A program made the position numbers and the translations under genes. Positions 19,467 through 63,730 of a stretch of DNA of 64,000 bases are shown here, one piece after another. The notes under the pieces were generated by a model. That model was not told the origin of the DNA, made no database searches, and saw nothing but the letters and a program-made list of their open reading frames with translations. Position 1 is the stretch's first letter. Each line of letters begins with the position of its first letter. Origin of the DNA: Craspedostauros australis (Eukaryota; Bacillariophyta; Bacillariophyceae; Mastogloiales; Achnanthaceae); contig JAMXDE010000005.1 in assembly GCA_026770025.1 (NCBI GenBank), forward strand, positions 1,302,001 through 1,366,000. The letters run 5' to 3'.

Positions 19467-21381
19467 GCGCAGACGTCGTCATCGGCATTTGATGAGGATA
19501 TCGTCCGTGTGATGAGACGGTGAGTTGCAGTGATGGATCAGCGTTTCAATGTTGATCGAAGACACGGTACGTCACATTGTGGAACGGAATGCAACGGAAT
19601 ACAACGAAACGAAATGGAAGAGGGAACGAGTACAGGAAATGACATCGTCGCGCCAGTCCGGACAAGGAAAGAATGGAGATTGTGATGGTAGTGGTGGTGG
19701 TTGTGGAATGGGTGAGTTGATGCGGATTGCATGATGTTGACAAATCGCAAAGTCAAGACGCAAGTGATATCCGACCATGGAGTTGTTGCGTGACGCAAGA
19801 GGAAAACGACGATTGGCGGCGTTCGATCATTCATGTTTCATACTGAATGGTTGCTCATGCTGGCTGTCCTCATCGTGGTCGTTCGTTAAACAGTTTGAAA
19901 GCCTATCTGCCATCGTCATCGTTCACGTCCACGCCTCCATTTATACCCCGTCCGCACAGATACGATGGCCGCGACGATGGTGGGTCAAGAAAGAACCGTG
20001 CCATGGCCGCCGGATCCAAAACAAGGAAATGGCGTGCATGTTCGTGTTCATGTTTGTGGTCGGGTTTGTGTCTGTCGTTGATTGCGTGTGACATTCGGGT
20101 TCGGCATGTTTCTGGATCTCGACGTGCGTTTGTGGGACTGTGCACGTGTCAAGGGAAGAAAAGATACGGAAGCCTGATGGCAACGATCCATCATCTCCAT
20201 TCCCCGCCGTCCGTTCCAAATCGTTTCGTCGACTTTACCGTCGCTGCACCTGCTATACCATGCTATCATCGTCGCTGCTATACTCACTCTTGACATTGTT
20301 GAATGCACTGGATTGGAGTGCAATGCTCGTGGCGACCAGAGCCGCGACGGCTTTGCCGTATGCACCTCCCCACATCTTGACTGCTGGGTTTCTGTGAGAT
20401 GTGCAGATGTGTGTGTTTTATGACGTTTTGTGTTGACGTCTCTTGTGGTGTGGAGTGTGGCATGGTAGCGCGTGAAGGTGTGCTGAAGCGCGATGTGGAG
20501 TGAGATGTCACACAGTTGACTTGACACAAAGGCTTCCTGACCGCACAAGGGAGTTTGGCATTGTTCTGTGTGGGTTGGCACCGTTGAAGTTTTGGCGGAG
20601 CGATTGTGTGACGTTGGTGATGTCGATGGATCTCTCTGCCAGCAGATCCTCACGCAATTTCGAAATCCAAAGTTCGCATGTTGATGTCACATCTTCATCC
20701 GCGTACAACCACCGTGCCAACCCAAATACGTCTGTGTTCACTCTTCACTTGATGTGTCGCCTGGTGACGTCTGGTCCACATCGAACGGCTGGTGACATCA
20801 AATCTGCTTCACGCACCTGCCTGGTTCGCGTGTTGACAACTTCGCGTGATTTGATTTCCATCATCAAGATGACGACGTGTAACCAATCATCGTCGCTTTC
20901 TGCAGTCCCGGGTAGGAGGTTCGTGACGATGCCGACGTCATTGTTTATGAACGGCTCTGCTCACTTCTCTTTCTCCTCATTGTTGTGTCGTGTGGAATAA
21001 ACGCCTATCCAGGTACTTTTACACGTTTCAACCTCAGGACTGATCTCATTCTTCGAGAGTAGACGGACTCAGATGACCGCTTGGACGTTGGACACACTCG
21101 AGCACTTCGACATTCTCCATCGCGTTCGCTGTGGTTCGATGGGCGAAACCAACAAAGGGACACAGGAGAGAGTCAAGATTCCAACAAGGGTATGCGCAGA
21201 CCCAACAAGAGAGCGGCAACAGGCGGAAGATCCCACAGAAGAAGCCCAGCCGAACATCAGGCACCGCAACACGGTCACACAGCACAAACCAGAGCAACTC
21301 TGTGAGTTCAGGAAAGGAAGCATTGACAGCAATAGTATTAGTAATAGCAATAGCAATAGCAATAGCAATAGCAGGCGAAAG
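19467..21381. other. divergent intergenic region between ACCase and RPN11
   Basis: About 1.9 kb, the largest gap in the window, holding both promoters. Open frames of up to 200 codons occur on both strands (for example 20048-20653 minus, 20500-21000 plus), but they have no recognisable domain and no consistent codon bias. The last 60 bases hold a CAATAG hexamer repeat. Confidence 0.5.
21342..21373 (+). repeat. (CAATAG)n hexanucleotide repeat in RPN11 leader
   Basis: About five copies of CAATAG or close variants end 9 bases before the RPN11 start codon. The tract keeps the upstream reading frame open, encoding Ser-Asn repeats. Confidence 0.75.
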
Positions 21382-30174: not shown

Positions 30175-31152
30175 TCATCGCCTCTTCATTGGACCGCCAA
30201 TTTCATCGATCTTTGATTTGTACTCCTCCGGTGTTCTGTGCGCATCCCCCAACGTCCAAGCCAGCGATTCGTTGACAACGTCGCGTCCCACCATCGTCAC
30301 GACACTGTCGTCAGCATCGTTGTCTTCATCTGCATCGCCTCCTTTCCACTTCGCCACGCGTTCCAATCGGTACGGCACGCTGCGTTGATTGCCGTAGATG
30401 TATTCATTCGTCTCCGGGTTGAAGCCACGATCGTTGATGTAAAACACATCGTCGTACAGCGACAGCTGATCCAAGATCTTGATCTTTTGACCTGGCATCA
30501 TTTGGGATTCCACGATGGCCTGGCCGTGCACCATGATGGCATGCATGCACTCCGTGTCAGCATCGTCATGATCGTCATCCAGATACGCGTGCTGCACCGC
30601 ATCGCGTGCAACGCTCCACGCAATGTCACACTTGGGCAGCTCCGTCAAGATGCTGCGATCGTTCTGCAATGCGCGATGGAAGATGCTTTTCCATCTGCCT
30701 CCCACTTCCGCTTGCAGCTTTTGAAAGATGTGTGGCGCGACGGTGTAGAGCTTCATGCAGCAGTCGGGTTGCAATTCGTAGTACCGAAATCGAAAGATGC
30801 GCTGCGGCTGACCTTCGAAGTAGAAGGCGGCCAATCGGGAAGTCTCGGTGATGGGGACCAAAGTGCAATGGATATGCTCGTGCTGTCCACCTTCGCGCGG
30901 TGTCAAGTATCCATCTTCACGATCTTGCAGCACCTGGTTGTAATTGTCAAAGTCGCCTTGAAACAGCGTCTGGAATAAGCGCTGGATCGTCGCCGTCTCG
31001 TCCGTTTGGGCGGTGGACGTGACGGAGTCGCACAGTGTGGTCGTTGTCGTGCTCCTGTGGATGTCGTTGGAAATTACAAATGACCATGTGCTCCTCAGCA
31101 TCAGGCCGAGCACGACTTGTTGCATGATCGTGCAGGTGGAAGTACGCTTCAT
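30175..31152 (-). CDS. CpcT/CpeT-family chromophore lyase homologue, plastid-targeted
   Basis: Single exon, 325 residues from the ATG at 31152; the frame also opens upstream to 31320 (T/N/H-rich, judged leader). The start MKRTSTCTIMQQVVLGLMLR-STWSFVIS has a signal-peptide core followed by S-F, an ASAFAP-like cleavage site, so plastid import is likely. The body matches the CpeT fold: FQGDFDNYNQVLQDRE near residue 63, HEHIHCTLVPI, AAFYFEGQPQRIFRFRYYEL, a Cys in CDIAWSV, and the hallmark block MMPGQKIKILDQLSLYDDVF then RGFNPETNEYIYGNQRSVPY. In cyanobacteria and red algae these lyases attach bilins to phycobiliproteins. In an alga without phycobilisomes the role is unknown. It ends 181 bases from the oppositely oriented membrane-protein gene. 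Confidence 0.85.
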   Translation of the reverse strand: MKRTSTCTIMQQVVLGLMLRSTWSFVISNDIHRSTTTTTLCDSVTSTAQTDETATIQRLFQTLFQGDFDNYNQVLQDREDGYLTPREGGQHEHIHCTLVPITETSRLAAFYFEGQPQRIFRFRYYELQPDCCMKLYTVAPHIFQKLQAEVGGRWKSIFHRALQNDRSILTELPKCDIAWSVARDAVQHAYLDDDHDDADTECMHAIMVHGQAIVESQMMPGQKIKILDQLSLYDDVFYINDRGFNPETNEYIYGNQRSVPYRLERVAKWKGGDADEDNDADDSVVTMVGRDVVNESLAWTLGDAHRTPEEYKSKIDEIGGPMKRR

Positions 31153-31705
31153 CGTCGTCAGTATCACAAGTACGTATGGCAGTGATGATCGTGTCTCTCG
31201 CAATGAATGGCCAGACTCCAGAAACATCGGCATGTGTTCGACTGCTCGCAGGACGAGTCGTCGTGTGTTCACCTTGTTGTTGTTGTTGCTGTTGTGGTGG
31301 TGGGAAGATCGCCGTGTCAACCCACGAAGAAGTTAGTCCCGCAATATGAGTCATGTTTTTGCGAATGGAGTCGCACTGGTCGGCTAATTCTGATCGTGGC
31401 GCGGAGTTGTGCACAAAAACGCGACAACCCGAACACAACGCATGGCCATTTTGGTGTGGAAAATCGCGCGAAGGAAATCGAGAGGAGAAATGGCGGAGGC
31501 AGCAGAATCAGAACAGAGAGCAGCATCTTCGCTGACACAAAAGTTCGCGACGGCACAAACAGACACATTGCCCTCCCTCGTTCGATTGTGGCTCGATGCA
31601 GAGCGCAACGGAGAACACCATCAGACCACAACAAAACAAAGCACCTCCAACCAACGATCCAGTGTCTTGCACCCTGCTCTCAGGCACCACAAGAGGACGG
31701 CAACG
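31153..31705. other. divergent intergenic region, about 550 bases
   Basis: Probably a bidirectional promoter between the CpeT-like and Myb-like genes. GTTGTTGTTGTTGCTGTTG at about 31274-31292 is a simple repeat. No gene seen. Confidence 0.45.
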
Positions 31706-33731: not shown

Positions 33732-34716
33732 GTGAGTTCGTGCAGAGTGTCGTTTGCTGCCGTCGTGTTTGACTTGTGTTGCTCTCATCGCTCACCTCAT
33801 TTTGCCATGCTCAACACCATTCCATGGGACACTGCTCCATTCTATACTCGCGCCACACTTTGCATCGGTACCTTCTTGGGCGACTGCCGCGATAGGATTG
33901 CTATCGTACGATATCGCGAAGCAATAAAAACAGTCCGAAGTTCGAATAGGAGAGCGAGGTGGGTTCAACTCGACTTCGCTACTCCATCACAAAGAATACA
34001 TACGATACGACATATTACATCTTCCATTTGTACAGAATGATATTATATTATATACCACTGGGCATGACACTACCTAGAGAAATCTTGACAACTGACTGCA
34101 GGTCCCATCATTCAAGTGGGTCATATCTCAAGACAAATTGACACGTTTGATTCCGGACTCTGGGTCGACTGACTCGGCTGAGTCATATCATCAGACCACG
34201 AAGAGATGCCATTCATGCTTTTCTCCAATTGTTGTCGCTCATAATTTTGAGTCATGCATGCCAAAGGTGAATGCGTTGAGCGAAAATTTTCTCCAACGCA
34301 AGCAAATTGTCATCATTGTGGAGGTGCTCGTTGGCGACGAACGGATGCGAGCAGCACCAATGCAAAGTCAACGAATAGGACAACAATCGTGGTGGTGCGC
34401 AGTCAGATCACAACACATCGCGCTGCGCACAGAACGGTGCTATCACCGTCGTCGTTGTTGTCATCGTCGTTGTTGTCATCGTTGTTGTTGTCGTCGCCAG
34501 CATTCTCACCAGCATTCTCACCACATCAACAACACCAACAACAGTCACAGTCACAGCAGTAGGCACAGCAATAGCAAGAGAGCATCAAGAGAGCACGACC
34601 GAGAGATAGACAGAGAGTGGAACAACAAGAGCAATCACAGAGACCGTCCATCATCGTGACAAAGGACAACAACCAATCCAAGCCAAGGCATCAATCCAGA
34701 ACTCATCGAGCGCACC
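33732..34716. other. 3' part of Myb gene and leader of LRR gene
   Basis: Holds the unresolved last exon of the Myb gene, an AT-rich block (ATGATATTATATTATATACC, about 34037-34056) and then trinucleotide-rich sequence (GTCGTCGTTGTTGTC and CAACAACACC runs, 34440-34560) that reads as the LRR 5' leader. The open frame to 34659 encodes His/Arg/Ser repeats and is unlikely to be protein. Confidence 0.4.
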
Positions 34717-37340
34717 ATGGTGAACACCCTTCAAATTGCGGCGACGGTCGCCTCGTTCGGGGCGACGGCGGCAGACCTCCCGGTTCTGCAGATGCATAGC
34801 ACCGACACTAACTCCTTGGTGAAGCGAAAGCGAGTGCTGGCGAATGGACGCTTGGTAGATGCAGATGCAAATTCGGATTTGCATTTGTCGTCGCCGCTCA
34901 AGACCCTGTTCAAGAAAAAGACTGACGAGGTTGAGGATCTGTGGGAGCATGCCGCTGTCGATGTCGACGAACGCATGCTGCAGAACATGGGTGAGATGAG
35001 TTTCCCAACCGCATCGCCTGTGCAAAGCCCCACCACAGTACCGCCCGTCATGGCACCGCCGACCCTCAGCCCGGCAGCTACCTTGAATCCAGCTACGCCG
35101 ACCGATGCACCGGCAGGAACCGCCAATCCAGCAACGCCAACGGATAGTCCGGTGCAGGTCACCACGGCGCCAGATGGCAGCACAGCCAGTCCCACAGTGA
35201 CGGCGAGGCCATCCGTGACAAGAGAACCCACCCCATCGCCACAGGAAACCGTGAGCCCGACAGCAACTCCAACAGCAGGGACAGCGGAACCAACAACGAC
35301 CCCCAGTCCCACAGGAGACCCAGCACAGCAGACGGGCACACCAACCAGCATTACCACAGCCCCAACTTCGGCACCAACCATCACATCTTCCCCCACAGCC
35401 GCACCCACCAGATCGTGTTTGGACGGCAGAACGCGAGGCGAATATCTCGCGGAGATCATCCAGCCCATCACGCCAAGCTCGATATTCACCGATCTGTCCA
35501 CGCCGCAAGGCGAAGCATTCTCGTACATGCTCAACAACGATCCCTACTTGGTCAATATTTGTCGATCGACGCTGTTGCAACGATACATCTTGACGACATT
35601 GTACTTTGCCACGACTGGCCAAACATGGACCAACATGGAGGGATGGTTGGGAATGGATCAGGAATGCGAGTGGCAAGGATTGACCTGTGGCAACGTCAAC
35701 GATCCGTTGATGGTGACCGATTTCGTGCTAGGTACGTCGTTGTTGTATCCCCATGCGTGTGCATCTACGGATGTGCAGATGTGCAGGCCATTGATTGTCT
35801 GTGATGGTTGATGGATGACCTGTTGTGAAAGGACATACTCTGCTCTCGCGTGCATTCATTTGGACAACGGCTGACGCTATTCTTTGCTTTCGTTTCGTCT
35901 TCTTCCGCGTTTTAATCATCTCTCAACTCGGTTCATGCTGCTGCGCTCTTGCGAACGTGCTCCTCCACCTCGGCAACAGAGAACAACAACATCGATGGAC
36001 AGCTTCCCGATGAAATCGGCGGATTGACGACTCTGCGCACTTTCGACGTCTTCGCCAACTCCATCAGAGGTATCATTCCCGACAACCTACGCAACATGAC
36101 GAACTTGGAAATTCTCGATCTCAGCGAGAACCTCATCACAGGAGAAGCCCTTCCCGATGCCTTGTACCAACTTGAGGACCTGCAGATCTACAGAATCGGC
36201 GGCAACCAAGTCGAGGGTTCCTTGAATCCTGGCATCGGCATGCTCCGCAACCTGCGAGAACTCTCGGCACCTGGAAGCCAACTGAAGGGCATGATCCCAA
36301 CCGAGATCGGACAGCTGCTGTTCTTGGAGTTCTTGCAGCTCAGCAGAAATTCTTTGATCGGAACCATCCCCTCCGAAATCGGGAGGGTCGGTTTGCGCGA
36401 TCTTCGTCTCGATCAGAACTTTCTGCAGGATGGAATCCCGACTGAGCTGTACAACGTTGGGAGTTTGACATCGTTGCAACTTCAGACCAATTTCTTGTTT
36501 GGTGGACTTGCAACGACGCTCGGTCAGATGACCAATCTACGAACCATCCGTTTGGAGGACAACGACTTCTCCGGAGCTTTGCCAGATACCCTGTCCTCGT
36601 TGGTAAATCTTGGTATGTCTATGATAGTCTGAATCGAGTCCGTGGTTGATCTGGCATTGGAATCCCCAGTGGCTTGGGATGATTGCAGCACAGATACCGG
36701 TTGGTTCTTGCTGGCCTACTTGTAAAATGGCAGCTCACCGATTCGTTGCGCCTTCTTTTCGTTCTATTTGCACTTGTGCCTGCATTTGCACTTCGTCCCA
36801 ATCACTTACATTATTGATCCACAACAACACACAATGGCAACGACACTGACATGGTCAACGGCAGAGCAATTTGTCATCTCCGGCAACATCTTCTCCGGCG
36901 CCATCCCGGATATTTTCGCGGGATACACAAGCCTGGACACGTTCGATGTCTCCGGCAACTTCTTCAGCGGGCGCATCCCGGCATCTCTCTTCAGCGTCCC
37001 GTCCATCCGTCTTCTCTACTTGTCCAACTGCACCCTCAGCGGCCCCATTCCATCCACATACTCCAACCCGCCCAATCTTCGCGATCTGTACCTCGATGGA
37101 AACCTCATCACGGGGACAGTCCCGACTGTCCCTGCCGGTAGGTTGCTTCTCCTCAACGAGCTCCTCCTGCAACGGACCAATTTGGTGGGTAGCATGCCGC
37201 AGTCCGTTTGTGACCTGCGATTGGGTGGCATCCTCGATGATCTGTGGTCGGACTGTGGAGGCGAAACCCCAGAAATTCAATGCGACTTCCCAGATTGCTG
37301 CAATCGATGTTTTGAGGGCGGTCTGCCTGTCGAACCATAA
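34717..37340 (+). CDS. secreted leucine-rich-repeat protein with Pro/Thr-rich stalk, three exons
   Basis: Exons 34717-35731, 35980-36612 and 36865-37340; both introns (248 and 252 nt) are phase 1 and fall after matching LRR positions. Product 707 residues. A short hydrophobic start (MVNTLQIAATVASFGATAA) is a possible signal peptide. Residues about 93-225 are a mucin-like stalk of TPTDSP/PTASP units, expected to be O-glycosylated. An N-terminal cap follows (LQRYILTTLYFATTGQTWTN to DQECEWQGLTCGN), then about ten LRRs of the plant-type LxxLxLxxNxLxGxIP pattern (for example MTNLEILDLSENLITGEALP). The end, LWSDCGGETPEIQCDFPDCC-NRCF, is a Cys-rich cap of the kind seen in many diatom LRR proteins. 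No kinase or membrane anchor follows, so it is probably a cell-surface or wall protein that binds peptides or glycans. Confidence 0.88.
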
Positions 37341-37715: not shown

Positions 37716-37805
37716 TTAGTCATCGTCACTATCATCTCCCAGCACCATGCGCTTTTTCTTGTTGCCGTCTCCAGATCCTGAAGCTGGCTTCATCTTGATG
37801 GGGCT

Positions 37806-37838
<33 letters not shown>

Positions 37839-40800
37839 ACTGCCATCGTCTTCATCTTCATTCTCACTGCCATCATCATCATCATCAATGTCAATGGCGG
37901 ACTCCGTCGTCTCTTTCTTGCTGTCACCAATGGCCGTCGTTGGTTTGGTATTCGTCTCCTCATCGGAGCCGTCTGCGAGGACCATGGGTTCTGTTTTGGT
38001 ACCCTCTTTTGTTTTCGGTTCCGTCAATGGACTTGGTTCCTTGTCGACGTCAATGGCGGTCTCTGCTTGATCGTCCTTTGCTGACGATTTGGTCTCAAAT
38101 TCTTCATCGGAGCTATCAGCAAATACCTTGGACTCGAGCTTTGGTTTGCTGCTACGAGCTGGCTTTGTTGGCAGACTCGGTTCCTCCATAACTATCTCAT
38201 GTCCTTCCTTACCAACGTCGTCCAATCCGGACTTCTTGGCGCAACTCTGGCACACCCAGTCGCCGTTAGGGATGGTGTCCCGTCCGATACAATGGATATG
38301 AAAGCTCCGTTCGCAGCCTTGGATTTCGTCTCCGCCATCACAAATTAGCAGCTCTCCTGCTTCGTTGCAAATGTGGCAAGCGTCATTCGAATCTTCGCCG
38401 TCAGTTTCGTTGTAATAGTCGGATCCCACAACTTCTTCTTCGTTGCCACTGAAATTCCCTTCCATCCCGCTGTCATGGTCATCGTCGACAAAGAACGCGC
38501 GATCCTTGCGCTCTTCTTCAGGATCGTAGTCATGTTCTTCTTCGCTGCCGGTTGCTTCATCGTCCATCACGTACATGTTCCGCGATTTGTTGCGCTTCTT
38601 GCGCACCGCAGTTGAGGCATTATGTTGCGATGCATGAATCTGTGATAGATCGATCTCCAACTCCGCATGCGTACCAGCATGGCAAAAATGGAGATAGGAT
38701 ACGTCGCGATTGGCATCGTTGAAATCCAGTTCGAATGGAATTGCAGTCTTGGTGCTGTTGGAGATCGCCAGTCTTGCCAACGGTGCTGCAGTGTCACCAC
38801 CACTCGGCGTCTTCATATTGACCTCGATGTAGGTTTGGAATCGTTCCTCAGCGAGGCAAATGAGGTGTTCGTCTTCGACGTTGGAAATCATGGTCGGGAA
38901 TCCACCATCCTCAGCTTCATCTTCCTCCATCATTATCAGACTCAAATTGAAGATGTATCCTTTGTCGGCATCGTACGTCGGTGTTTCGGCGAGGCATAAG
39001 GCCAGCTGCATGCGCTGATCTCGCGCATCCAGCACAATGGATCGACGCAGCTTGAGCATACGATTTGCAGAATCGTTGTTGCAATTGACAGCGATCGTCC
39101 TCCACGGCTCATCGTCCAGCCCGCTGATCACTTCGTGGCCACGAGAATGCGCGCCATTGCGTTCGCCGGATGTTGCGCGTTGTGCACTCTTGATGCGATT
39201 CACGATGTCTTTGCCGAACAGCGTAACGACGCACGCACGTAGCGACAGATTCACGCTCAGGGAGGATTGTGGACAGGCCAGAGTTTGCCGGCAAGTGGGG
39301 CACGTTCCGCGTACAGTGGCAGCCGTTGCGCTTGCCGCGTTGTCATTGTTGAGACGCCCTAGCCACCAATTGAGGCATTCCTTGCAGAATGAATGACCGC
39401 AGGGAAGCGAGACTGGCTGATAGTACGGATCGTGGCAGATGGCACAGGAAAGATCCTTCCGGAGGGATGCGCCGACTTGGTCTGTGGACAGGATTGTGGT
39501 GGTGGTAGGCGGCGGTTTTGCGGATCTTGGCGTTGTCCCCACGGACGGACTGGCTGATTTTCTGGGAATCCGCATTGATGCGTTGCTGTTAGTGTTGGTG
39601 CTGTTGGACTGGCCAAGGAGACGTTGTTTGATGTAATCGACACGCTGTTGGATCTCGTCCATATTCTCCCGCGCATCCATCCCATCTTCGTCATCGTCGT
39701 AATAATCCTCCGTTCCAAAGTCCGTAACCAATTCACGTCCCAGGATCTTCCGTTTCAAGTCTTTCAATGAAACGTCGACGTCTGAGCCTGGGTCTGCAGA
39801 TTGCATGCTGACATCGCCATGGTCAACCTGGCCATGAAGACCATCGCCGTCGTCATAATTCTGGTGATGGTCGCTGTTATGAGTATCGGCTCGAGATGAT
39901 GATGATGAAGAGGATTCGTCATCACCCACTTCGATAGATTCGCCATCCGAAAATTGTAGTCTTGTTTTGTGTTCGTCTGGTGCGGCTGGCTTGGATTTTA
40001 CGTCGCCCTTTGTTGAGTCTTTACCTGCCGAAGCCATTGCCTTTGTGGATGATTGCGGGGCTGGTGCTGTGGTCGCCTTCACATCATCGTCCTTCTTCCC
40101 CCCTATTGCCTTCTTTCGTGGGATGGCTTTTGCCAAGCCCACCTTGGTCCCAGCCACCTGCGTTGCATCCATACCGCCTTCCGGTCTACTTTGGGTTGAC
40201 TTTGCATTGCCACTATCGACATCGTTGCCCGCACATGATGGCGGCGGCTTGGTGTCAGAGGACGTTCCTTGTTTGATGACGGCTATTTCGTCGCTGTCGC
40301 CGTCATTGCTCGTACAGCTTTTGGAATTGTTTGGAGGTGTTGGATTTTCTTTTGATGTTGGATGCGCGTGCTCTGCGTCAGCTTTGGTATCGTGCTTGTC
40401 GTCGCTTTTGCTGTCGCTGTCACTACCGTTTCTGCTTGAACTGCTGCTGCTGCTGGTGGTAGTTGAACTGCTGTCACTGTCACTGTCGCTCCCGCTACTG
40501 CTTGAACTGCTGCTACTGCTCGAGTCGCCACCACCATCAATGTCACTGCTCGACCCTCTATCATCATCATCATCATCATCCTTTCGTTCTTGCTGGATTG
40601 CTGGCATGGACACTGGTTTTGACTGGGCTGAAGGTCGTTTCTTCTTGGTTACAACGGGCGGAGCCTGAGGTGATTGTGGACTCTGTTCGTGATCGTCGCT
40701 GAGCTTGCGCTTCTTGGTTCGAGTGTCGGGGGGAATTGCAACGGCGGATGAAGCATCCTCCTGTCGTGGCTGAGGCATGTCGCTGTCCTTCGCTGCCATC

Positions 40801-41132
40801 TTCTTCGATGGGTCATTGATGACAGCAGCAATGGGTGCGGCCGAGGCAACGGATGAAGAAGGCGGCCTCTTGGGACCCTTGCCCGACAAGCATGCGTCGC
40901 ACGCTGCCGCCTTGCCTCGTTTGGCCAGCATCTTCTGCATAACATTGAAGGTGCAGTCGGAGGCAGAGCCAGGGGATCGCTGGCACATGGAGCACCTGAG
41001 CGTCGACTTGATCTTGAACTTGCTCTTCGCGCCACCTCTTCCAGCAACAGCAGCAGAGGACTTCACACCGATCGTTGCGATGGGCTTCGACGGCTTCTGC
41101 TTGGCCTTCTTCTTTTTCGACTTGGGCGCCAT
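37716..41132 (-). CDS. RING-finger plus PHD-finger nuclear protein
   Basis: Single exon, 1138 residues, ATG at 41132. A Lys-rich start (MAPKSKKKKAKQKPSK) is a nuclear signal. A small Cys cluster (RCSMCQRSPG to CDACLSGKG, about residues 46-83) may bind zinc. A long Ser/Asp-rich disordered region follows (acidic runs near 190-240). The RING domain is at about 564-612 (CAICHDPYYQPVSLPCGHSF-CKECLNWW to CPTCR). A folded region of about 280 residues with no assigned family comes next. The PHD finger is at about 918-968 (CHICNEAGELLICDGGDE to CFHIHC-like residues and WVCQSCAKK). The C-terminus is acidic with an eight- to ten-Asp run coded by a TCATCG repeat. RING domains of this type act as E3 ubiquitin ligases and PHD fingers read histone H3 tails, so a chromatin-directed ubiquitin ligase is likely, but the substrate is unknown. 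Confidence 0.85.
37806..37838 (-). repeat. (GAT)n/(GATGAC)n coding microsatellite
   Basis: TCATCG hexamers repeated about five times, encoding part of an Asp run near the C-terminus of the RING-PHD protein. Confidence 0.8.
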
Positions 41133-41674
41133 CTTGGCGGTTCAAATTGGTTCTTTCGAGTCTGCTCCTGCGCTCTCAAATGTACTATATCTTCAGACCA
41201 ATAGTCGTAACATCGACAACGAATGGTCCGATGCTGCGATGCTTCGATGATGCGATGGTTGATGAATGGATGATTGGTCTTGTTTCGCTGATGTGTTGGG
41301 CAGAACAGACCAGGATCTTCGTTGCGTGCGGATGGAAATTGAGTTTTGGCGCGTTCTTCGGTGCCGAATTCAACACGACTTCTTGCCAATCGATTCGTTG
41401 GAATCTACACTAGCACACGACTTCTTTGACTAGATCTTGTTTGGTGAGTTTCGATTGGGTTATGGGCTCTTGGTGTTGCGGGCCAGGAGCTTCGCGTGGA
41501 CTTGTTTGTTGTTGGTGCTTGTTGCGTTGTTTTTCGTGTCCACCATGGCGCAAGCTGCTGTCGTTCACCAACGAGGCACCGTTCACAACGACAACATCGA
41601 GACGACATACAAACACTCTCACGGCAAACACAAACAACAGCAACGGCAAGCACGTCAAAAGAAATTGATTCACC
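41133..41674. other. divergent intergenic region, about 540 bases
   Basis: Shared upstream region of the RING-PHD and eIF3i genes. The last 130 bases are ACAACAGCAACGGCAAG-rich leader sequence of eIF3i. Nothing coding recognised. Confidence 0.45.
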
Positions 41675-53665: not shown

Positions 53666-53840
53666 GGAAATGTGGGAGAAGCACATGAGGACAACAACAA
53701 CAACAACAACAACGAACAGGGCTTCGTGAGTTCGTCAGGATCAAAAATTGAGAGCTGAGATGTTACTCGTACGTCCTTGTACGCATGGCATCAGATCGGC
53801 TTACGGAGCCGACCATTACCCTGACTTCGGCGAAGCGCCT

Positions 53841-56800
53841 TCACTTCGTGGTGGGAGGAGCCGGCGGAATAGGTTTCGCCACCTTCATCTGGGGTCGCAC
53901 TGCGGCATGCGGTGATGCGGCCTGGATGGGGGCAACTGCCGTGGCCTGCGGACGTACGTACGTCTGGACAGGAACCTGCGTGGCGACCTTGGCTCCAATG
54001 GGAGCGGGAGCCGCAGCAGGAATGGGGGCTCGAACGGGTGCCGGCGCCGCCACAGGAACACGCGCTTGTGGACGCATCTGGACAGGTATAGGCGCAGGTG
54101 CAGGGGCTCGCACGGGTGCACGCACAGTCGCCCGTACTGGTGCTGCGATTGGCACTGGTACAGGCACTGGCGCTGGGACAGGCGCAGGGGCTCTCACTGG
54201 GGCTGGGATTGGCACCGGCACTTGAGCAGGCGATGGTGCGGGCACCTGCGCTCTCACTGTTGGTATCGTTCGACGCTGCGCGGGTCTCGTGCCATTCTGC
54301 TGAGCAGTTACGTAACGGACCGCGGTTTGCTGCTGCTGCTGCTGCTGCTGAGATCTCTGCTTGGCTTGCGCAGCCCGTTGACTGGCCTTCGCGGCAGCTG
54401 CCTTCTGGCGGCGGATCGTTGCTGCGGAAGGCTTTGCTGCAGTGTGTCTCCGATTCGAACTTTGTGCTCCCCTTGCGCTGGCGCTCGACGCACCGTTCAA
54501 CTTTGACGCTGCTCGTTTACTGGGAGGTCCAGCCTTTGTCACGGCCTTGACTTTGGCGTTCATTGCGGCTGTGGCGTTGCTGGAAGCAGCAGCGGCGGCA
54601 GAGGCGCTTCGTTGCTTGTCGGCCATATCAAGAATTTGGAGTGGCCACATCTCTGCCCGACCTCCAGGCCAACTGGTAGCGATGGTCGCCTGGACAGACT
54701 GCGTATGCGAGGCATGGATTCCTACAAAGGTTGCAGGACTGCCAGGAGGAACACCAGGAATTGAAATAGGTATCGTCTGTTTGCGTGATTTCGCTCTTCT
54801 GATTGCCCCAAATGAACGTCGTGGCTTGCCTCTTCGCGTCGTTGTCTCTGTCGCCAGAGATGCCGATGGCGGTACGCAAGCGGCAGCTTGTACGCCTTCA
54901 TTCAGTCCAGTCGGTGTCGTATCCATTGGCTCAGTTTGGGTGCTGCTATCAGCTGGCGGAATGTTTGCCGGAATACTCGTAAGTAGACTAGTCTTTGCAT
55001 CGTTGCAACTAATCCGTAACGCAGCCTGCGAAGTTGACTTGTCAGCTGTTGCTGTTGCTGCAGGTGCTCCTGTGGCAGGTAGATATGTATCTGAAGGTGT
55101 TTGTGTCCTGTCAGGTTGGGATACATCCGACGCTTTCTTATTGGATAGAGCTTCCCATCGATTCTGGCACTGCTGCGCTGAACGGAATTGCAAATGTTGC
55201 ACTTGGTTAAGAGAGTGAGCTGAGTCCGAGGCGTTCGTGGATCCCAAGCTCGCCATCGTCGTCATCGTTGGAAGGCTGGAAACAATTCTGGCGATCATGA
55301 TCCAATTCTTGCTGTACTTGTTGACGCAGCCGGTGAGCATGTCGTCCTGTTCCTTCGTCCACATGATAGGTGTTCCACCGGAGGCTTCTTGGGGTATCTT
55401 CACCCCCATCGGCAGCGAAATCCCAACCCAAGTCCTCCTGTGCACGATCTGCGTCATCCCCAACGTGGATGCGAAGAAACCGCCGCGGAATGGACCAAAA
55501 TCGACGCGACGTGGTGCCGTCATCGACTGCTCCAACGTCGCAAGTTGCTCATCCGCCAGCGCCAACACAGGATCTGTTCCTTCACTTGTAGTTGCAGGTG
55601 CAGATGCGGCCAGCCGTGTTCCAATCGGCCTCCACTGATGCATACTGTTTTGCGTCTGATGGCTGTTCATCACCTTCAGTGACGCACCGGGGCCTTCTTC
55701 GAACAGTCGACCTGGCTTCCAGCAACGACTTGCTGCACGTCCAGCTACGCGACCAACGATGCGACCGGCGGCTAGTTGGTACGATCTCGACTCAAACAGC
55801 GATAGACCTGTAGTGTACTGCCGAGATGCAAAGGAGCTGAGCAACCTTTGTTGGTGAAAGTCTGTGATCTTGATGAATGGGACATTCACGTTCGCATTCA
55901 TGGTGCTGTTGGTTGTGGCTGTGGTTGTGGCTGTGATAGTGGCGGTGGTTGTGCTGCCCTTTGTAATGAACACACCATTGGACACGACCGAATGCGGAGT
56001 CGGAGCAGACATCGACGTGGTTGTTGCTGGCGCAGCCGGGGCGGCCTGGACTTTCTTCTTCGTCTTCTTTGCTCCAACCGGGACGAGAGGCTCATTCGAA
56101 ACGATCCTCCCCAATGCCGTTGCAGATGCAAAGTATGCCGCCTTGGATTGCATGGTTGCCCACATAGTATCGGTCATCCCACCAACGGGTTGCTTGAACG
56201 TTGGCAAGTTGGACTCGACGTACAGCTGCTGGCCAGTCCTTTTACGCTTGGTGAAAAGAAGGACAGAATCCAACCTCTTATCATTCTCATCCGCATCCAG
56301 TTCTTCTGCGCTGCACGGCGCGAATGGCGACAAGACGTCGTCATCACGAAAGTACAGCGATCGGGATGGGAATTCGCCGAGAGTTGTCTGCGATGCAATC
56401 ATCGTTGATTCTTCATCCCCCGGAAGCACACCAGAGGCAAGAAGGCCAAAGTCTTCATCGAATAAGTCGAATGTGGGGTCATCGGCTTCAGGAGCTGGTG
56501 GGTTGGCACATTCTGGCTGCGGCTGCATCAGTGGTTGCTGCTGCATGGTTGTGATGGGGATTGGATTGATCTCTGGCAACGATGGCGACGTGGATGGTGT
56601 TGGCGTGATTGTCGTGAGATCGGTGTTGGTCGGCGGGGGCAATGCTGTTGATAGGGTTAACGACGGGGCAATGTCGATGGCCTCTGTTCCTGGCATTGGA
56701 TCATCAAGCAGCGTTGTCAGATCGGACAAGTCCATATCTGCCAATGTCGGATCTTCGATCTTTGGCCTCTTCGACTGGGGAGATGCATCAATCATCATGC

Positions 56801-59800
56801 CGTCCGATTCCTTCCGTTTCATCATGACCGGGGTGGGTTCGATCTGTGTCAGGAGATTGATGGACGTCTCCTCGTTGAACTGCTTGTCCTGCTTGGCTCT
56901 TTCGTAAGACTCTCGAAGGCCTGGGAACAACGGTGGGAAGTAAATCACAGCCTCGCAACCTTGGTTTCCATCCCCGGTGTCCAACGTGGCCGTGGTATCC
57001 ACGAACTGCTTCACGAAGGCATTCAGCCGTTTCTTGTACGGTGCTGTGTCGCTCCTTTGCTGCTGCTGCTGATCATCGGATTTAGTGTCCACAGGAAGAT
57101 CATAGAAGATCACTGTTGGGTCGGAATCGTCCAAGGAATCCGAGTCCAGCGATGTTGCCGCATTCGGAAGAGAACCGTTGACCGCGTCATAGTTTGCATC
57201 TTGCAAAGCATCGCCGGCAACACCTGCAGCGGTAGCGGCTTCCGACTCCGAATTGGGATCAATCGATGCTGTTGTGCACACGAGCGTGGTGCGTGCAATG
57301 GCATTGGAGCCGAAGCACAGGTCGTAAATGAACATGCGCAAGCACATTGACGGCATATCCATTCTAGAGATGATTTCGGGAGGGAGATAACCTTGGAGTG
57401 CAGCTTGTGTGTTGGGATGGATGACCATGGTCTTGGAGGTAGTACTGTGGGTGCTGCGGAGAGCGATTGAATCCTCATCATCTCTTTCGTGACTAATGAG
57501 GGTCGTGACGAAGTGCATCTCCTGGCTCATCTCCGAATCGTGCATCCTGGCCATCGCAGGAGGTGCGGAGACGTCGTCAAATGGAAAGAAGATCGCTGAC
57601 GAATCATCGCGCGGGGAGAACAGCCGATTGAGTGGAACCTCCGTTCCGAGGATGGTCGATAGTGGCTCACCTCGGAGTTGCAGAATGTTCAATGCCGGAA
57701 ATTCAAAGAAACTGGAGGAGGTGGTCTTCGCGCTCTGCCTCCAGAGGTTGACGGCGTCTGCCGACGCCCCCGGCAGCTGCAGACGACTTCGTTCATCCAC
57801 GGGCCAACGCAGCATGGTCCCATTCCCCAGCAGGTTGGTCGGCGTGCCGCTCCCCAGCAACGTGTCTTCGATTGTGTCGCTGCAGACCAAGCGAAGGAGG
57901 CGCACTCTCTCGCTCGCGGATGCAGATTTGTTCCGTGCCAAGCTTCGTGCCGCAATGTACTTCATGCTAATTTCCCCGCTCCCGCTCCAGTCATCGTCAA
58001 GGCAAATCACTAGATCTGCCAATTCAACGCCCAGTCCTCCTGCACCACCACCAAGCATATCAGGTGACGCGATGACGATGTTGGACGAGGGGTGGCTGTC
58101 ACCCGTGTTGCCAATCGCATTGAAGTTGGACAGCGTGCGTTGGACTTCGGCCCATGCCATGGCTGCTTTTTGAGATGCCGCTTGACCACCATGCGCCAAA
58201 TTGGGCGATGCCGAATCAAGAAGTATCTCTTTCGTGCTCATGGCATTGCTTGACAAATCGCGATGGGCGATCCCGACTGAATGAAGCAGAAGCGATGAGA
58301 GGATCCGCGCTTCTAACATAGTTGCCAGAATCGCGATACGCTTCGGCCGTGACTGCTTCTTCTTTGACTTTGACTTGGATTTGCTCGGCTTCCACCGATT
58401 GTCCGCGGACAGCAAGTCTTCCAGCTCCTCTTCTCCTTGCATCGCATAGCCGCAATCGTAGCGGATTATAGAAAGCAGCTCTCTGTACTTGGCGGATCGT
58501 TCCAGAATCAGCTTGGCTGCTTCGACATCTGGCTGCGAGGCGCTGATTGCGGGTTTGCTGGAGGGGCTGTCCAATCCATGCAATGTGACGCTGTCGAACC
58601 GATCCGCCAGGTGCTTCTGCTTCAGCTTGGATGTGATGACGGTGCTGCCGAAGACTTCATCCAACTTAGAATGCACGCAGAGCTTTCGCAGCGCCATCAA
58701 TGCCACAGTACTGGTTTGCCCGCCCAGAAATTCGGCATCGTTGGGAGACCGATTGAGCTTGCCGGACAGCGCGCCACGCACGACAGCGCAGAATGCGTCG
58801 TAATCTTCTCTTTGTTCGTCCGGAGTTGTGCAGGAACGCGTTTCCCATCGCAAACCGCCACGCGATCGGGACGTGACTTGCTCCGCCGTGACGATGCCTT
58901 CGATTTCGATGAAGAATGGGCTCGAAATGTCCTCGAGCACATGCCGCACGCGCTTCACCTTGTCGGCTGTGGACTTTTTACCTCTCTTTCGAGCCCAAGT
59001 GAGGACACGGCGGCTGATGGACTGTTCCGACCATCTGAATAGCCTTGGTCCAAGGATGAAGGCCGCTCGAAGTGCCAGCAACACGACTCGTTGCTTCTCG
59101 GTGATGCCCAGCGCGCTGAAGACAGCATCGTCCGATCCAGTGTACTCGACAATGAGACGATTCGCATTCCCTTCCAGCGCGAAATGGACGACTTCGTCCC
59201 ACCATGACACTGTCATGAGTTCGCACGAAATTGCCTTGCTTTGCTCACCACTGTCCTTGTCCGACATGCCGCGACGATGCAACTGACCGCCCAGACCAAA
59301 CTGTAGCGACTTTTGGAATGCGATTGGATGCCTGCAATCGATCGCGACAGCATGGAATTGAGATATCGACTTCCCAAGAACTGTTCTCATGCGTGGCAAG
59401 GCTGCGAGTTCGCACACGATAACATCACCCGCCTCAAGCTTCATGGAATGCACTTTGATGTCGTTGGAATTGCTGATACCACCCGACAGCCCAAACGACA
59501 GCACATCCATGTCTTTGAAACGACTCAGTTCGTGCTTCCATCGAATCTGCGAGATTTGGCATGGTACGAGTTGGAGAACAGAAGAGTGCGCGAAACAGAT
59601 GAGTGCACGCACATGCGAGATAAGTCCAATCGCGAATTAGGGACGAGAGAGTGATGGAATGAGTGAAGAGTGGTGAGAAAATTGACGACACTTTGTGTGT
59701 GTTGTGATGGCAAGACATACAACGTACATCGGTTCACGTCGCCGCGGTGTCGTCATCTTCGTCGCTGTTCCCATACTAGTACGTATTCATAACTTACCAC

Positions 59801-62695
59801 GCTGGATGCGGGACACACAAGCACTTGTGGACCATGGGCGCGTTGCTTCCAAAGCAAGGTACACGTCGCTATTGTCTTTCCGGAGGACGCCGGTCCTGCC
59901 AGAACACCGCCAGGTGTATGCTCCGTCCGCCCCCACAGCTCCTCCAGTATTTGGATGGCCTCCTTTTGACCTGCGTAGAGGCTGAAGCTATCCGTATCGA
60001 ATACTTTCAGCTTCTCACCCTTGGAGGATGATCGTGATCGGCTGTCAACTGGACCTTCGATGACCTTCTCGATGTTGTCTGATATTTCCTCCAGTGAAAG
60101 CTCCTTTTGTTCAACGGCGGCATCGCCATCTGCGTTGTCGTCTTCGCTCTCCAACGAGGAGTTGTCAATGTCCATGTCATCGGATTCCTTGCTTTTGTTG
60201 TCGTCACTTTGGTCATCGTCGTTGGCGTTGCCATTTCGACTGCCATGTTCGCTATCCTCTGAATCGGCATTGACGTCGACATCCGGGAGCGGTTTTCCAA
60301 TGCGGCTGTGGTATTCACGGAAGGCTTGTCTGTACGCTTCATCGCTTCTCGGCGCAAAACCAGCGTTCTTCATGGCTCCAACGAATTCATCCATCATCGC
60401 GGCTATGTTCTTGGCAACTGTCTGAGCTTCCGTCCTATCGCTGTCGGTGGGCGGGGGATATACTTCTGATGCAGATGCTGTGCGAGCCAGATCTTCGCGA
60501 TCCTGCATTTTGGTTGGAGTTGCTGTGGCGGCGCGCGTCGTGCTCCCGTTGGCGTCGTTGCGTATCGATGGTTGTGGCGATTCGAGTGTGCTTGGCATGG
60601 GTGTTGAAGGTGCCGATGGTTTGGTGGTGAAGTGAGGATGCTTCGAGAGATGCTTCCCCAATGATCTCGCTGCCACGTGTTTCCATTTGCGCTCTTCGAT
60701 GAAGTCAGTCGCCATCCATCTCATTTCCTGCAGCAGGGTATCCCAATGCGTCTTTCGTCGTGCCGGTAACCGTGCTGGCTCTGTAGCTGTGCCCAGATGC
60801 GCCAAATTTCTTGCCGATGCGGATGACATGTGATGCGATCGTGCTGCTGTCGTCGCAGATGTGGCTGACGATGCTGTCGCCGTCGATTTCCGATTCCCCT
60901 GTGCAGTTGCTGCCGTTGATGTAGCTGTTGGTGGCCCTGGGTGTGGTATTGGATTGCCATTGCGATCAACATAAAGCAGTCCATCTACGTCTCTCTGCTG
61001 CTGCTGCTTGACCATGAGACGACCGAGCTTGGCGAGAATTTGTTCCCGCTTTTCGCGCAATGCGATGGCCTCCGGAAAGATGACTGGCGGCTCCGCGAGC
61101 AAATTCTGAGGCAATGTTGATGGTGCTGCTGTGGCGTGCTGCGGCATGATTTGCAAATCCTTCTGAGACGATGTCGTGGATAGCTTTGTGTTCGATGCTG
61201 ACTTTGTGACCCGTGCTCCCTGCTGTTTGTCCTGCTTTGTGGATCCACCCGCTGCTTTGTTGCCTGACGCTTTGCTGCTGAGGATGGTAGTTGAAGCTGC
61301 TTTCCGCATCGCCTTCGGAGTCACCGCTTGCGGGATGATGCTGCTGCTGCTGCTGCCAACCTTGAGCGCTTGCATGGAGGTGGACGTCTTCAAGGTCGTC
61401 TTGGATGATGCTGAAGGTTGATGCCTCTGCGCTGTCCCGGTCAGTTTGGATACCGCACTTGTCGCTGGTTGTGACGAGCTGGTGCCAGTCGTGATACTGG
61501 TCGAAGACGTCCCTGGAGCAAGCGAGGAGAGAGCAGCATTCATGCGTTTGCCAACACTCGCACCCCTTCTCAATGACAACGACGTCCGCTTTTCTGCAAG
61601 ACCGTCCTCCGACCGACCCCTCTTGAGACTGGTGGAAGCCTTTTTCGTGAGATCTTTCCACATAGCGATATCTTCCGTCACAGAGGTTGTCGTGACATTG
61701 GATGGGGCGACCCCTTTCGCATTCTCATCCAATCGTCTCTGCGAGACCTCTCGGCATAGCATCATTCGGTTTAGTAGCATCCGTCTGTGTGCAACAATCG
61801 CGCGAATTCTGGCCTCTCTGCTATTCGACATTTGTACCTGCTGCGTCGCCTGCTGCGTCGCCTGCTGTGTTGTACTTGCAACAATTCCTCCTGTCGATGG
61901 AGCAGGGACAGACACTGCGGCTATTTGTGGCTGCGCGCTCTTCACCACTGAATCATTCTGATCTGTTTCACTCGTTGCGGCTGCTTTCGTTTGATTGCGT
62001 CCTTTGGTTGCCACTGGCTGAAGGTTGGTGGAATTTGCTGCCTCCGTCGACGCTGTTGCTGGCTTTGTTTCTGTCTTTGGCAACGCTTTGACTTCCTGTT
62101 CGGATGATCTTGCAACTGCTGCTGCTGCTGGGGCAGTGACTGCCTTCATGGCTGAAGCTGGCGTTGACTTCGCAGTCACATTGAGACTGGCAGATTGGGC
62201 TGGCTGCTGTTGGTGTTGGTGTTGCGATTGCACAGCTGCTGTCCGAGCTGGTGCGGATACTGGCGCCGCCGCTGAAGTCGGTGTTCGTGACTGCAGTTGC
62301 GCGGCTGCCGCTGATGTTGCTGCCGCTGATGATGCTCCCGATTGCACATCGCCGGAAGGCTTGGAGTCTGCCGCTGCGCTCGCTCCGTTCGTATTGCCTG
62401 CTGTGTGTATGGTTGCATGTGCAGTCGCAGCCGTCGACGAAGAGGATGGTGGTGATGTAGATGTAGGCGCAGGCGTAGACATGGATGTAAATGTAGATGC
62501 TGACACAGGAGCTGATGTCTGCGGCATTTGTGCTTGCGCTTGTGTTTGGGGTTGCGCGGCGGCGTTTTTGTCGGAGGTGTCGGCTGAATTGGCCGCGCGA
62601 TCTGCGCGCGTTCGACTTCGGCGGGACACGCTATTGTTTGACGGCCCAGCACCATCGTTTTCAGGCCGTTTGCGCTTGTTTCTCGTGGAAGACAT
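53841..62695 (-). CDS. EP400/Eaf1-like HSA-SNF2-SANT protein with degenerate ATPase, two exons
   Basis: Exons 62695-59798 and 59546-53841, with a 251-nt intron (GTG/GTAAGT, CGCAG acceptor). Product about 2867 residues. The N-terminal 640 residues are Gln/Ala/Ser/Thr-rich. An HSA domain, the actin-related-protein dock of such remodellers, is at about 645-690 ([29 protein letters not shown]). The SNF2 domain starts near 915 ([14 protein letters not shown]), Walker A is GPASSGKT (about 933-940), and the splice joins LVCPASSV to [12 protein letters not shown]. Motif II should be DEAH/DEGH but reads IDCRHPI (about 1035). The C-terminal helicase lobe ends [20 protein letters not shown] to [15 protein letters not shown], without the GQ of motif VI. 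A SANT domain is at about 2345-2430 ([20 protein letters not shown] to QQCQNRW). The tail is a Pro/Ala/Val repeat. NuA4/TIP60-type scaffold is the best reading; catalytic activity is doubtful. Confidence 0.82.
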
Positions 62696-63730
62696 CCCTC
62701 AGATGCTGCTCCGATACGGTGCCTCAATCATGTGCGGTGGCTTGTGTTGGGGGGAGCTGTTGATGGCTCGTCTTGGGATGTATTATGTTATATTTGGTTA
62801 TGCTCTATTGTATTTGGTTGCACCTGGGTGTATCTGGGATCCTTGCTGCTGTGCTGGGGTTGCTTGCTTCTTGATCGCAGGGATACGAATCGAGACAAGA
62901 CAAAAAGAGAGGCAACAAGGAGGAGGAGGAAGGCAAAAGGGAAGAGGAGAGAGCTGCCCTCTTGTTCTATTGATTACTGCCGTTGCTGCTGTTGCTGTTG
63001 TTGTCGTGGGCTGATTTCTTGTTTCTCTTCGTGGCTCCTTCGTCTTCGTGTTGTTGTTGCTGCCCCTTGTTTGTTGCAAGTTTTGCTTCACTCTCCTTTG
63101 TTTCTTGGCGTCCCGCTCTCTGTTTGCTGCTCTTCGCCTACGTGTCGTCTCCTTGTCGCAGCTCCAGACGGACAAAGCCGATGGTTCTGGCGTGGCGCCA
63201 AAATTGTGGCTGTGTGAGCAGGAACGCAGTCTGTCCGGTTGTGCGTGTTTTTTGGGACCATAAGTGGCATGATTTCAGTGCTTTTGATTGGTCAACACTG
63301 ATTGGATGATAATCACTTGTAAACCGTGTCATTTAGCGCATGCGAACGCTACGCTGTCGCTGCGGACACTCGTGCGATCTATCCAGTCCAACCCATGATC
63401 CGGACATCGCCAGCCTCACAAATTCAAAATCCAAACCCAGATCCAAAATCAGAACCAGAACCAAAGCGAAAAAGCAGATGATTGGAGTCAGCACGCAAAG
63501 AGAACCAGGTAACGGCTACGAGGTATCATATGTGCGAGTATGGTTGAGAGATGAAGAGATGATCACTGATTGCACCACACAGTAGATCGATACCATAATA
63601 GCAGGTTTGCATTGCAGGTCCTGCTCACAGTCCTATCAACCAATACGTGTGAGAAACCCGGCACGTTTGCCTTCCCCCTCAGCAAAGGCATACTCCCCGG
63701 TCGTCGTCATCATATCTCTTTTGAATATCC
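62696..63730. other. intergenic region between two minus-strand genes
   Basis: About 1 kb. GTTGCTGTTGCTGTTG runs near 62985 and purine-rich stretches near 62905-62955; no gene recognised. Confidence 0.5.

What the first reader, a model, noticed from the sequence alone, without database searches (positions are those of the whole stretch)
53841..62695. EP400/Eaf1-like chromatin scaffold whose SNF2 ATPase looks dead
The protein has the full HSA, SNF2 and SANT order of EP400/Domino, and a good Walker A (GPASSGKT), yet motif II reads DCRH where active SNF2 enzymes have DE[AG]H. The helicase C lobe is recognisable ([13 protein letters not shown]) but motif VI lacks its GQ and nearby conserved residues. 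This could be an intermediate between EP400 (active ATPase) and yeast Eaf1 (HSA and SANT only): a pseudo-ATPase kept as a scaffold. Loss of the Walker B Glu is seen; the evolutionary reading is inferred.
Basis: partly seen in the sequence, partly recalled or inferred. Interest (0 to 1): 0.75.

Follow-up and report, generated by a model that had tools for sequence, protein, structure and literature searches.

The report
EP400/EAF1-like scaffold with dead motor
A eukaryotic gene encodes what looks like a chromatin-complex scaffold that still carries the remains of a DNA-translocating motor between its two docking domains, but the parts needed to burn ATP have eroded, which may show how one such motor is lost in evolution.

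Summary
Pfam finds HSA, SNF2 and Myb/SANT in that order. Both SNF2 lobes are real homologues (0 of 2000 shuffles reach either profile score) but severely eroded. Structural elements (motif I with flanks, Ia, CNHP-like, Va, post-VI) beat nearly all shuffles; the cores of I, II, III and VI score no better than shuffled sequence. The motif II position reads DCRH; no minus frame encodes DExH/DExQ, RxxRxGQ, R[AS]GG or GxGKT, so a missed intron is very unlikely to rescue it. Human EP400 also deviates at III, V and VI, yet native TIP60 exchanges H2A.Z. Best reading: an HSA-SANT platform of a NuA4-type acetyltransferase complex with a pseudo-ATPase relic. Not shown: relatives, expression, a second active SWR1, species. 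Motor subfamily is unresolved: human EP400's motor is not among the 60 of 65 matches shown.

The parts
59798..62695 (-). Exon 1: residues 1-966 (low-complexity N-terminal region, HSA, first part of the N lobe)
   Evidence: open reading frame and splice model
59547..59797 (-). 251-nt intron, GTAAGT...GCAG; splicing restores motif Ia ([16 protein letters not shown])
   Evidence: motif Ia better than 1000 of 1000 shuffles
53841..59546 (-). Exon 2: residues 967-2867 and stop (rest of the SNF2 region, SANT, A/P/Q-rich tail)
   Evidence: own frame scores best of the three sense frames in 14 of 14 windows from residue 801 to 2200 (19 of 28 over the whole protein)
60638..60760 (-). HSA domain, residues 646-686 ([23 protein letters not shown])
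   Evidence: Pfam HSA 2.7e-10; best PDB match EP400, 34.4 bits; 23 of 42 identical to EP400
59852..59911 (-). Motif I region, residues 929-948 ([20 protein letters not shown]): lysine and threonine kept, SNF2 core changed
59328..59339 (-). Motif II position, residues 1036-1039, DCRH where references have DEAQ/DEAH/DEMQ/DEGH
   Evidence: weak pairwise alignments with Snf2 and ISW1; core at chance, 8048 of 10000 shuffles as good
59130..59162 (-). Motif III-like stretch, residues 1095-1105 ([11 protein letters not shown]), TGTP lost, about 36 residues further from motif II than in the references
   Evidence: at chance, 5452 of 10000, so its position is tentative
58647..58712 (-). CNHP-like element, residues 1245-1266 ([22 protein letters not shown])
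   Evidence: 0 of 1000 shuffles as good
58497..58649 (-). 51-residue linker where INO80/SWR1-family proteins carry the RUVBL-binding insertion
58254..58340 (-). Motif IV-like stretch, residues 1369-1397
   Evidence: borderline, 767 of 10000 shuffles as good
57981..58082 (-). Motif V and Va, residues 1455-1488 (...[24 protein letters not shown]); STR of motif V reads GGG, Va kept
   Evidence: Va 1 of 10000 shuffles; V+Va 0 of 1000
57918..57971 (-). Motif VI position, residues 1492-1509, DRxxRxGQ absent
   Evidence: at chance; absent from the three minus frames
57855..57908 (-). Post-VI element, residues 1513-1530 ([18 protein letters not shown]), kept
   Evidence: 0 of 1000 shuffles
55143..55361 (-). 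SANT/Myb domain, residues 2362-2434
   Evidence: Pfam Myb_DNA-bind_6 2.5e-5, above cut-off; Myb_DNA-binding below its cut-off
53841..54647 (-). A/P/Q/R/V-rich C-terminal tail, residues about 2600-2867
   Evidence: composition

Best explanation
The protein is an HSA-SANT platform subunit of a NuA4/TIP60-type histone acetyltransferase complex whose central SNF2 motor is a pseudo-ATPase. The HSA helix would hold the actin/ARP4 module and SANT would dock on the TRRAP/Tra1 pseudokinase, as in Eaf1 and EP400. The two-lobed remnant in between keeps part of its fold but cannot hydrolyse ATP, because the Walker B glutamate, motif III and the arginines of motifs V and VI are gone. It also cannot organise a RUVBL1/2 hexamer in the SWR1 way, because the insertion is missing. 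So it would act as a spacer or passive binding surface while H2A.Z exchange, if it happens in this organism, is done by another remodeller. Shown: gene structure, domains, motif erosion, missing insertion. Inferred: loss of hydrolysis, complex membership, division of labour.
For: Domain order HSA-SNF2-SANT. HSA closest in the PDB to EP400, then SRCAP and EAF1. Both lobes are homologous to SNF2 motors (0 of 2000 shuffles each), with structural elements kept and the cores of II, III and VI at chance. No canonical motif in the three minus frames. Insertion absent. Reading frame open over 2867 codons, own frame preferred in 14 of 14 windows through the motor region, so the gene appears maintained although the motor decays. 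Precedents, passages read: the DOM-A ATPase is dispensable for H4K12 acetylation, and inserting the DOM ATPase between HSA and SANT of Eaf1 does not affect its function (PMC7239659, the latter citing Auger 2008); EP400 SANT and HD tether TRRAP (PMC11995519); Eaf1 HSA and SANT roles (PMC9643008); degenerate and dispensable SNF2 in MOM1 (PMC2507757).
Against: Human EP400 deviates at motifs III, V and VI and native TIP60 still incorporates H2A.Z with ATP (PMC11995519), so motif drift alone does not prove death. The P-loop lysine and threonine and the first Asp of motif II are kept, so ATP binding is possible. The SANT match is Myb-general: best PDB hits are Myb proteins, EAF1 only E 0.23. The motor scores best with Snf2, then ISWI, CHD1 and INO80 chains; SWR1 and SRCAP are weaker and EP400 is not among the 60 of 65 rows shown; the EP400 motor aligned with only 1.2-1.3 bits. 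The codon test does not favour the gene's frame in 9 of 28 windows, the HSA window among them. No relatives, no transcripts, no genome.
Confidence: 0.66

Rival explanations
1. A fast-diverging but still working EP400-type motor: hydrolysis survives with non-canonical residues, as human EP400 tolerates changes in III, V and VI.
For: Human EP400 motifs are IDSP, STHSRTTG and EWCDRIGR and native TIP60 is active in H2A.Z exchange (PMC11995519). The P-loop lysine is kept. A DE dipeptide occurs at residue 1083.
Against: Human EP400 keeps DEAGLGKT, DEMQ and the second arginine of VI; this protein loses the first two and, in the ungapped alignment, the third. Scores against active references (mean active / EP400 / this protein): I 42/36/11, II 31/21.3/7, III 56.2/32.7/10, VI 76.1/42.7/-2.3; at V it nearly equals EP400 (33 and 31.3). 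No RUVBL insertion.
Confidence: 0.1
2. A decaying gene or recent pseudogene: the motor erodes because the whole gene is no longer needed.
For: No transcript or selection data; no relatives found.
Against: 2867 codons open with one canonical intron; HSA 23 of 42 identical to human EP400 and a SANT domain recognised by Pfam while the motor erodes, which points to domain-specific relaxation.
Confidence: 0.07
3. The motor is not a degenerate EP400/SWR1 motor but another SNF2-type domain (Snf2/ISWI/CHD-like, without insertion) that came to lie in an EAF1-like HSA-SANT protein and then decayed.
For: Linker of 51 residues, nearer to 18-28 of Snf2/ISWI/CHD chains than to 243-1132 of the INO80/SWR1 family; best motor matches are Snf2, 29 bits, with SWR1 at 18.9 and EP400 not among the 60 of 65 rows shown.
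Against: Scores are too low to resolve subfamilies, and loss of an insertion is easy; HSA-SNF2-SANT order is known in animals and plants (PIE1; PMC4358907).
Confidence: 0.15
4. A gene-model error hides the true motor (missed intron or alternative exon).
For: One in-frame GT-AG candidate, 59248-58967, 282 nt, was found between motif II and the post-III region (which scanned 58650-59430 only, with a short list of donor sequences).
Against: No DExH/DExQ, RxxRxGQ, R[AS]GG or GxGKT in the three minus frames of 53700-63000, and the only xGTP are SGTP beyond the C lobe and GGTP beside SANT. The candidate stretch keeps the gene's frame preference; splicing it out would leave DCRH unchanged.
Confidence: 0.02

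Closest known systems
EP400 / Domino (DOM-A) and plant PIE1
   Same: HSA, SNF2 motor, SANT in one protein (PMC11995519, PMC7239659 and PMC4358907, passages); HSA 23 of 42 identical to EP400; EP400 too has deviant motifs III, V and VI
   Different: Motif II glutamate, motif I core and motif VI lost; RUVBL insertion absent (51 against 520 residues in EP400). Domino and PIE1 sequences were not compared here
Yeast and plant EAF1 (NuA4 platform)
   Same: HSA and SANT without a usable motor; presumed scaffold role
   Different: A two-lobed SNF2 relic of about 640 residues still lies between HSA and SANT; EAF1 lacks the ATPase domain (PMC4358907, passages)
SWR1 / SRCAP
   Same: HSA followed by a SNF2 motor
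   Different: Canonical motifs and a 243- or 1132-residue insertion there, both missing here; a SANT domain here
MOM1 (CHD3-derived plant silencing factor)
   Same: Chromatin protein with a degenerate SNF2 region derived from a remodeller (PMC2507757, passages)
   Different: CHD3 ancestry, unrelated function; no HSA or SANT as far as I recall

Membership tests
EP400/Domino/PIE1 | HSA domain | tested here: met
   Pfam 2.7e-10, above cut-off; EP400 best PDB match
EP400/Domino/PIE1 | Two-lobed SNF2 region between HSA and SANT | tested here: met
   Both lobes above 2000 shuffles, order; strongly eroded
EP400/Domino/PIE1 | Motor assignable to the SWR1/EP400 subfamily | tested here: inconclusive
   Best matches Snf2, ISWI, CHD1, INO80; SWR1 18.9 bits, SRCAP 13.4, EP400 not among the 60 of 65 rows shown
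EP400/Domino/PIE1 | RUVBL-binding insertion in the C lobe | tested here: not met
   51 residues against 243 SWR1, 277 INO80, 520 EP400, 1132 SRCAP
EP400/Domino/PIE1 | Catalytic motifs I and II (DExGLGKT, DE) | tested here: not met
   GPASSGKT and DCRH; cores at chance
EP400/Domino/PIE1 | C-terminal SANT that binds TRRAP | tested here: inconclusive
   Myb/SANT domain present but best matches are general Myb; TRRAP binding not testable
EAF1 | HSA plus SANT in one protein | tested here: met
EAF1 | No SNF2 domain between them | tested here: not met
   SNF2 relic present
Active SNF2 ATPase | Motifs II, III and VI intact | tested here: not met
   At chance; canonical forms absent from the three minus frames
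NuA4/TIP60 complex subunit | Physical association with Tra1/TRRAP, EPL1 and a MYST acetyltransferase | not testable with these tools
   needs purification; whole genome not held

The most novel reading that the evidence does not exclude
A living intermediate between the motor-bearing EP400/PIE1 platform and the motor-less EAF1 platform: a whole lineage keeps an HSA-dead SNF2-SANT NuA4 scaffold, showing that EAF1-type proteins can arise by decay of the motor in place rather than only by fusion or clean deletion, and that the NuA4 role needs neither ATP hydrolysis nor the RUVBL ring.
Probability: 0.35. Interest if true: 0.68.

Novelty: new variant of a known kind. Interest (0 to 1): 0.5.

Why it matters
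The passages I read propose that EP400-type proteins arose by placing a SWR1 motor between HSA and SANT of an EAF1-like protein (PMC4358907). The reverse route, EAF1 by loss of the motor, is my inference. A natural HSA-dead-motor-SANT protein without the RUVBL insertion is the state expected if a motor decays in place, and it parallels the finding that the DOM-A ATPase is dispensable for acetylation (PMC7239659). It makes the direction of change testable in protist genomes, and it draws attention to the eroded motifs of human EP400 itself.

Tried and rejected
AlphaFold2 on residues 905-1547 (643 aa) without relatives gave pLDDT 33.5 and pTM 0.20, so no fold search was run; the second prediction job was not spent. 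Relatives were sought with one 501-residue query (HSA plus N lobe) in viral contigs (2 stretches matched a pattern, none confirmed) and in genome contigs (20 matched, none confirmed); these are viral and prokaryote collections and could hardly hold them. The window's own genome is not held. Assigning the motor to a subfamily by PDB matches was inconclusive. A query covering SANT and the region after it found only Myb chains (9 rows). Literature: nine searches. In the rows listed (8-25 a search, out of up to 510 papers) I saw no report of a pseudo-ATPase EP400/PIE1 protein or of a diatom/stramenopile NuA4 platform; subscription papers could not be read, and Auger 2008 (not held) is known here only as cited by others. 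Missed-intron rescue was tested and judged very unlikely.

Limits of the motif tests. The windows were chosen after looking at the sequence. Motif VI was scored in two ranges, both at chance. RPFLLRR was also at chance (318 of 1000), motif IV borderline (767 of 10000). Motif II with flanks was unremarkable too (2166 of 10000), so its position rests on weak pairwise alignments, not on its own score. The reference set was small: 4 N-lobe and 5 C-lobe sequences for the profiles, 4 per element. Of the 2000 shuffles per lobe only 1029 and 913 obtained a reported score; the others counted as lower. One search skipped fragments under 15 residues; one search repeated the motif search without that limit. 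The rival motif II candidate WWDEVVHF was set aside by eye, not by a score.

Full report
Gene. On the minus strand one reading frame runs from ATG 62695 to 59798, a 251-nt intron (59797-59547, GTAAGT...GCAG) follows, and the second exon runs from 59546 to the stop at 53841: 2867 residues. The splice restores a motif Ia, [22 protein letters not shown], that beats 1000 of 1000 shuffles. With a codon table taken from the neighbouring acetyl-CoA carboxylase ORFs, the gene's own frame scores best of the three sense frames in 19 of 28 windows of 100 codons, and in 14 of 14 from residue 801 to 2200, the motor region. It does not in 9 windows, among them those at 601-700 (HSA), 2201-2300 and 2401-2500. 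Most scores are below zero even in the best frame, and one antisense frame often scores about as well. The test therefore speaks only for an unbroken frame through the motor region.

Domains. Pfam finds HSA at 645-686 (2.7e-10), SNF2-related domain at 918-1046 (1.2e-6, ending just after the motif II position) and Myb_DNA-bind_6 at 2362-2434 (2.5e-5); these three pass their cut-offs, a second Myb model does not. The HSA helix is closest among solved chains to EP400 (34.4 bits), then SRCAP (24.2) and EAF1 (20), with 23 of 42 residues identical to EP400. The SANT region matches Myb chains best (25 bits), with EAF1 far down at E 0.23, so its EP400/EAF1 character rests on position and on recalled signatures, not on a score.

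The motor is homologous but eroded. Profiles from SRCAP, SWR1, EP400 and Snf2 (plus INO80 for the C lobe) score 24.9 bits on the N-lobe region and 21.0 on the C-lobe region; the best of 2000 shuffles reach 9.3 and 5.2. Element by element, the shuffles that match as well are: motif I with flanks 0 of 10000, Ia 0 of 1000, CNHP-like 0 of 1000, V with Va 0 of 1000, Va 1 of 10000, post-VI 0 of 1000. Against this stand motif I core 3309, motif II core 8048, motif II with flanks 2166, motif III 5452 and motif VI 6365 of 10000; motif IV is borderline at 767 of 10000, and RPFLLRR is at chance with 318 of 1000. So parts of the fold framework survive and catalytic cores do not. Weak alignments with Snf2 (15.5 bits) and ISW1 (12.9 bits) put DCRH on DEGH/DEAH.

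Rescue by splicing is very unlikely. None of DExH, DExQ, RxxRxGQ, R[AS]GG or GxGKT occurs in any of the three minus frames of 53700-63000; the only xGTP are SGTP at 57851, beyond the C lobe, and GGTP at 55379, next to SANT (with narrower patterns agrees). A motif split by an unknown junction would escape. A DE dipeptide at residue 1083 (WWDEVVHF, window 59198) could be offered as a displaced motif II. By eye it fits the helix before motif III (RWQSLLNF in SRCAP, HWEAVFTL in EP400), and it lacks the H/Q.

No RUVBL insertion. Between the CNHP-like element and the GKL-like helix there are 51 residues. The corresponding distance in solved chains is 1132 in SRCAP, 243 in SWR1, 520 in EP400 and 277 in two INO80 chains, but 20 in Snf2, 19 in ISW1, 28 in CHD1 and 18 in chain 8v4y_W (SMARCA5 by recall). 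In EP400 this insertion, with the motor and the AAA-ATPase ring, forms most of the BASE module (PMC11995519, passages). A protein without it is not expected to build a SWR1-type remodeller.

A caution from human EP400. Its chain reads DEAGLGKT and DEMQ at I and II but IDSP at III, STHSRTTG at V and EWCDRIGR at VI. Native TIP60 nonetheless incorporates H2A.Z in an ATP-containing assay (PMC11995519, passages). Deviant III, V and VI are therefore not proof of inactivity. The present protein goes further: against active references the scores (mean active, EP400, this protein) are I 42, 36, 11; II 31, 21.3, 7; III 56.2, 32.7, 10; V 56.1, 33, 31.3; VI 76.1, 42.7, -2.3. At motif V it is hardly worse than EP400. 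The P-loop lysine and threonine stay, so nucleotide binding without hydrolysis is possible.

How it most likely works. In yeast NuA4, Eaf1 is the main scaffold, its HSA helix lying on Arp4/actin and its SANT binding the FAT domain of Tra1 (PMC9643008, passages). In TIP60, EP400 SANT and HD tether TRRAP. In flies DOM-A serves an acetyltransferase complex without needing its ATPase, and the fly ATPase domain inserted between HSA and SANT of Eaf1 does not affect its function (PMC7239659, passages, the latter citing Auger 2008). I infer that the present protein is such a platform with a pseudo-ATPase spacer. The complex and the division of labour are not shown.

What remains against it. The motor's best matches are Snf2 chains (29 bits), followed by ISW1, CHD1 and INO80; SWR1 gets 18.9, SRCAP 13.4, and EP400 is not among the 60 rows shown of 65; the EP400 motor aligned with only 1.2-1.3 bits. 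With the missing insertion this leaves open that the motor is not of EP400 ancestry. No relatives were found in the two collections searched, the genome is not held, and the structure prediction failed. The species was not determined; a diatom-like origin is an impression from recalled gene features only.

Novelty. [quoted passage not shown] A degenerate, dispensable SNF2 region is known in MOM1 (PMC2507757, passages). A review of epigenetics in marine stramenopiles (PMC3145265, passages) and a study of a trypanosome SWR1-like complex (PMC9236257, passages) showed nothing comparable in the passages returned. In the listings of nine searches I saw no dead-motor EP400/PIE1 protein. I call it a new variant of a known kind.

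Noticed in passing
PDB chains 8qr1_A / 9cae_A (human EP400): The human EP400 motor itself has non-canonical motifs III (IDSP), V (STHSRTTG) and VI (EWCDRIGR), a milder version of the erosion seen here.
   Followed up: partly
59163-59327: About 36 extra residues between the motif II position and the motif III-like stretch compared with SRCAP, SWR1, EP400 and Snf2; includes WWDEVVHF.
   Followed up: partly
58967-59248: In-frame 282-nt GT-AG candidate intron inside exon 2 that would remove the II-III region if spliced; it keeps the gene's frame preference, so probably not an intron.
   Followed up: partly
12981-19478 (-): Multidomain acetyl-CoA carboxylase in two long ORFs; the equally long opposite-strand ORF 12948-17399 looks like a shadow of the coding strand.
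   Followed up: no
30178-31332 (-): CpeT/CpcT family protein (7.6e-15); recalled as a phycobiliprotein-lyase family, which would suggest a lineage with a red-type plastid.
   Followed up: no
37719-41141 (-): 1141-aa acidic protein with a RING finger and a PHD finger.
   Followed up: no
34660-35808 (+): P/T-rich protein whose end resembles leucine-rich-repeat proteins of diatoms (recalled); no Pfam family at E 0.001.
   Followed up: no
8316-9536 (+): DHH-DHHA2 domain protein, a phosphoesterase type by recall.
   Followed up: no
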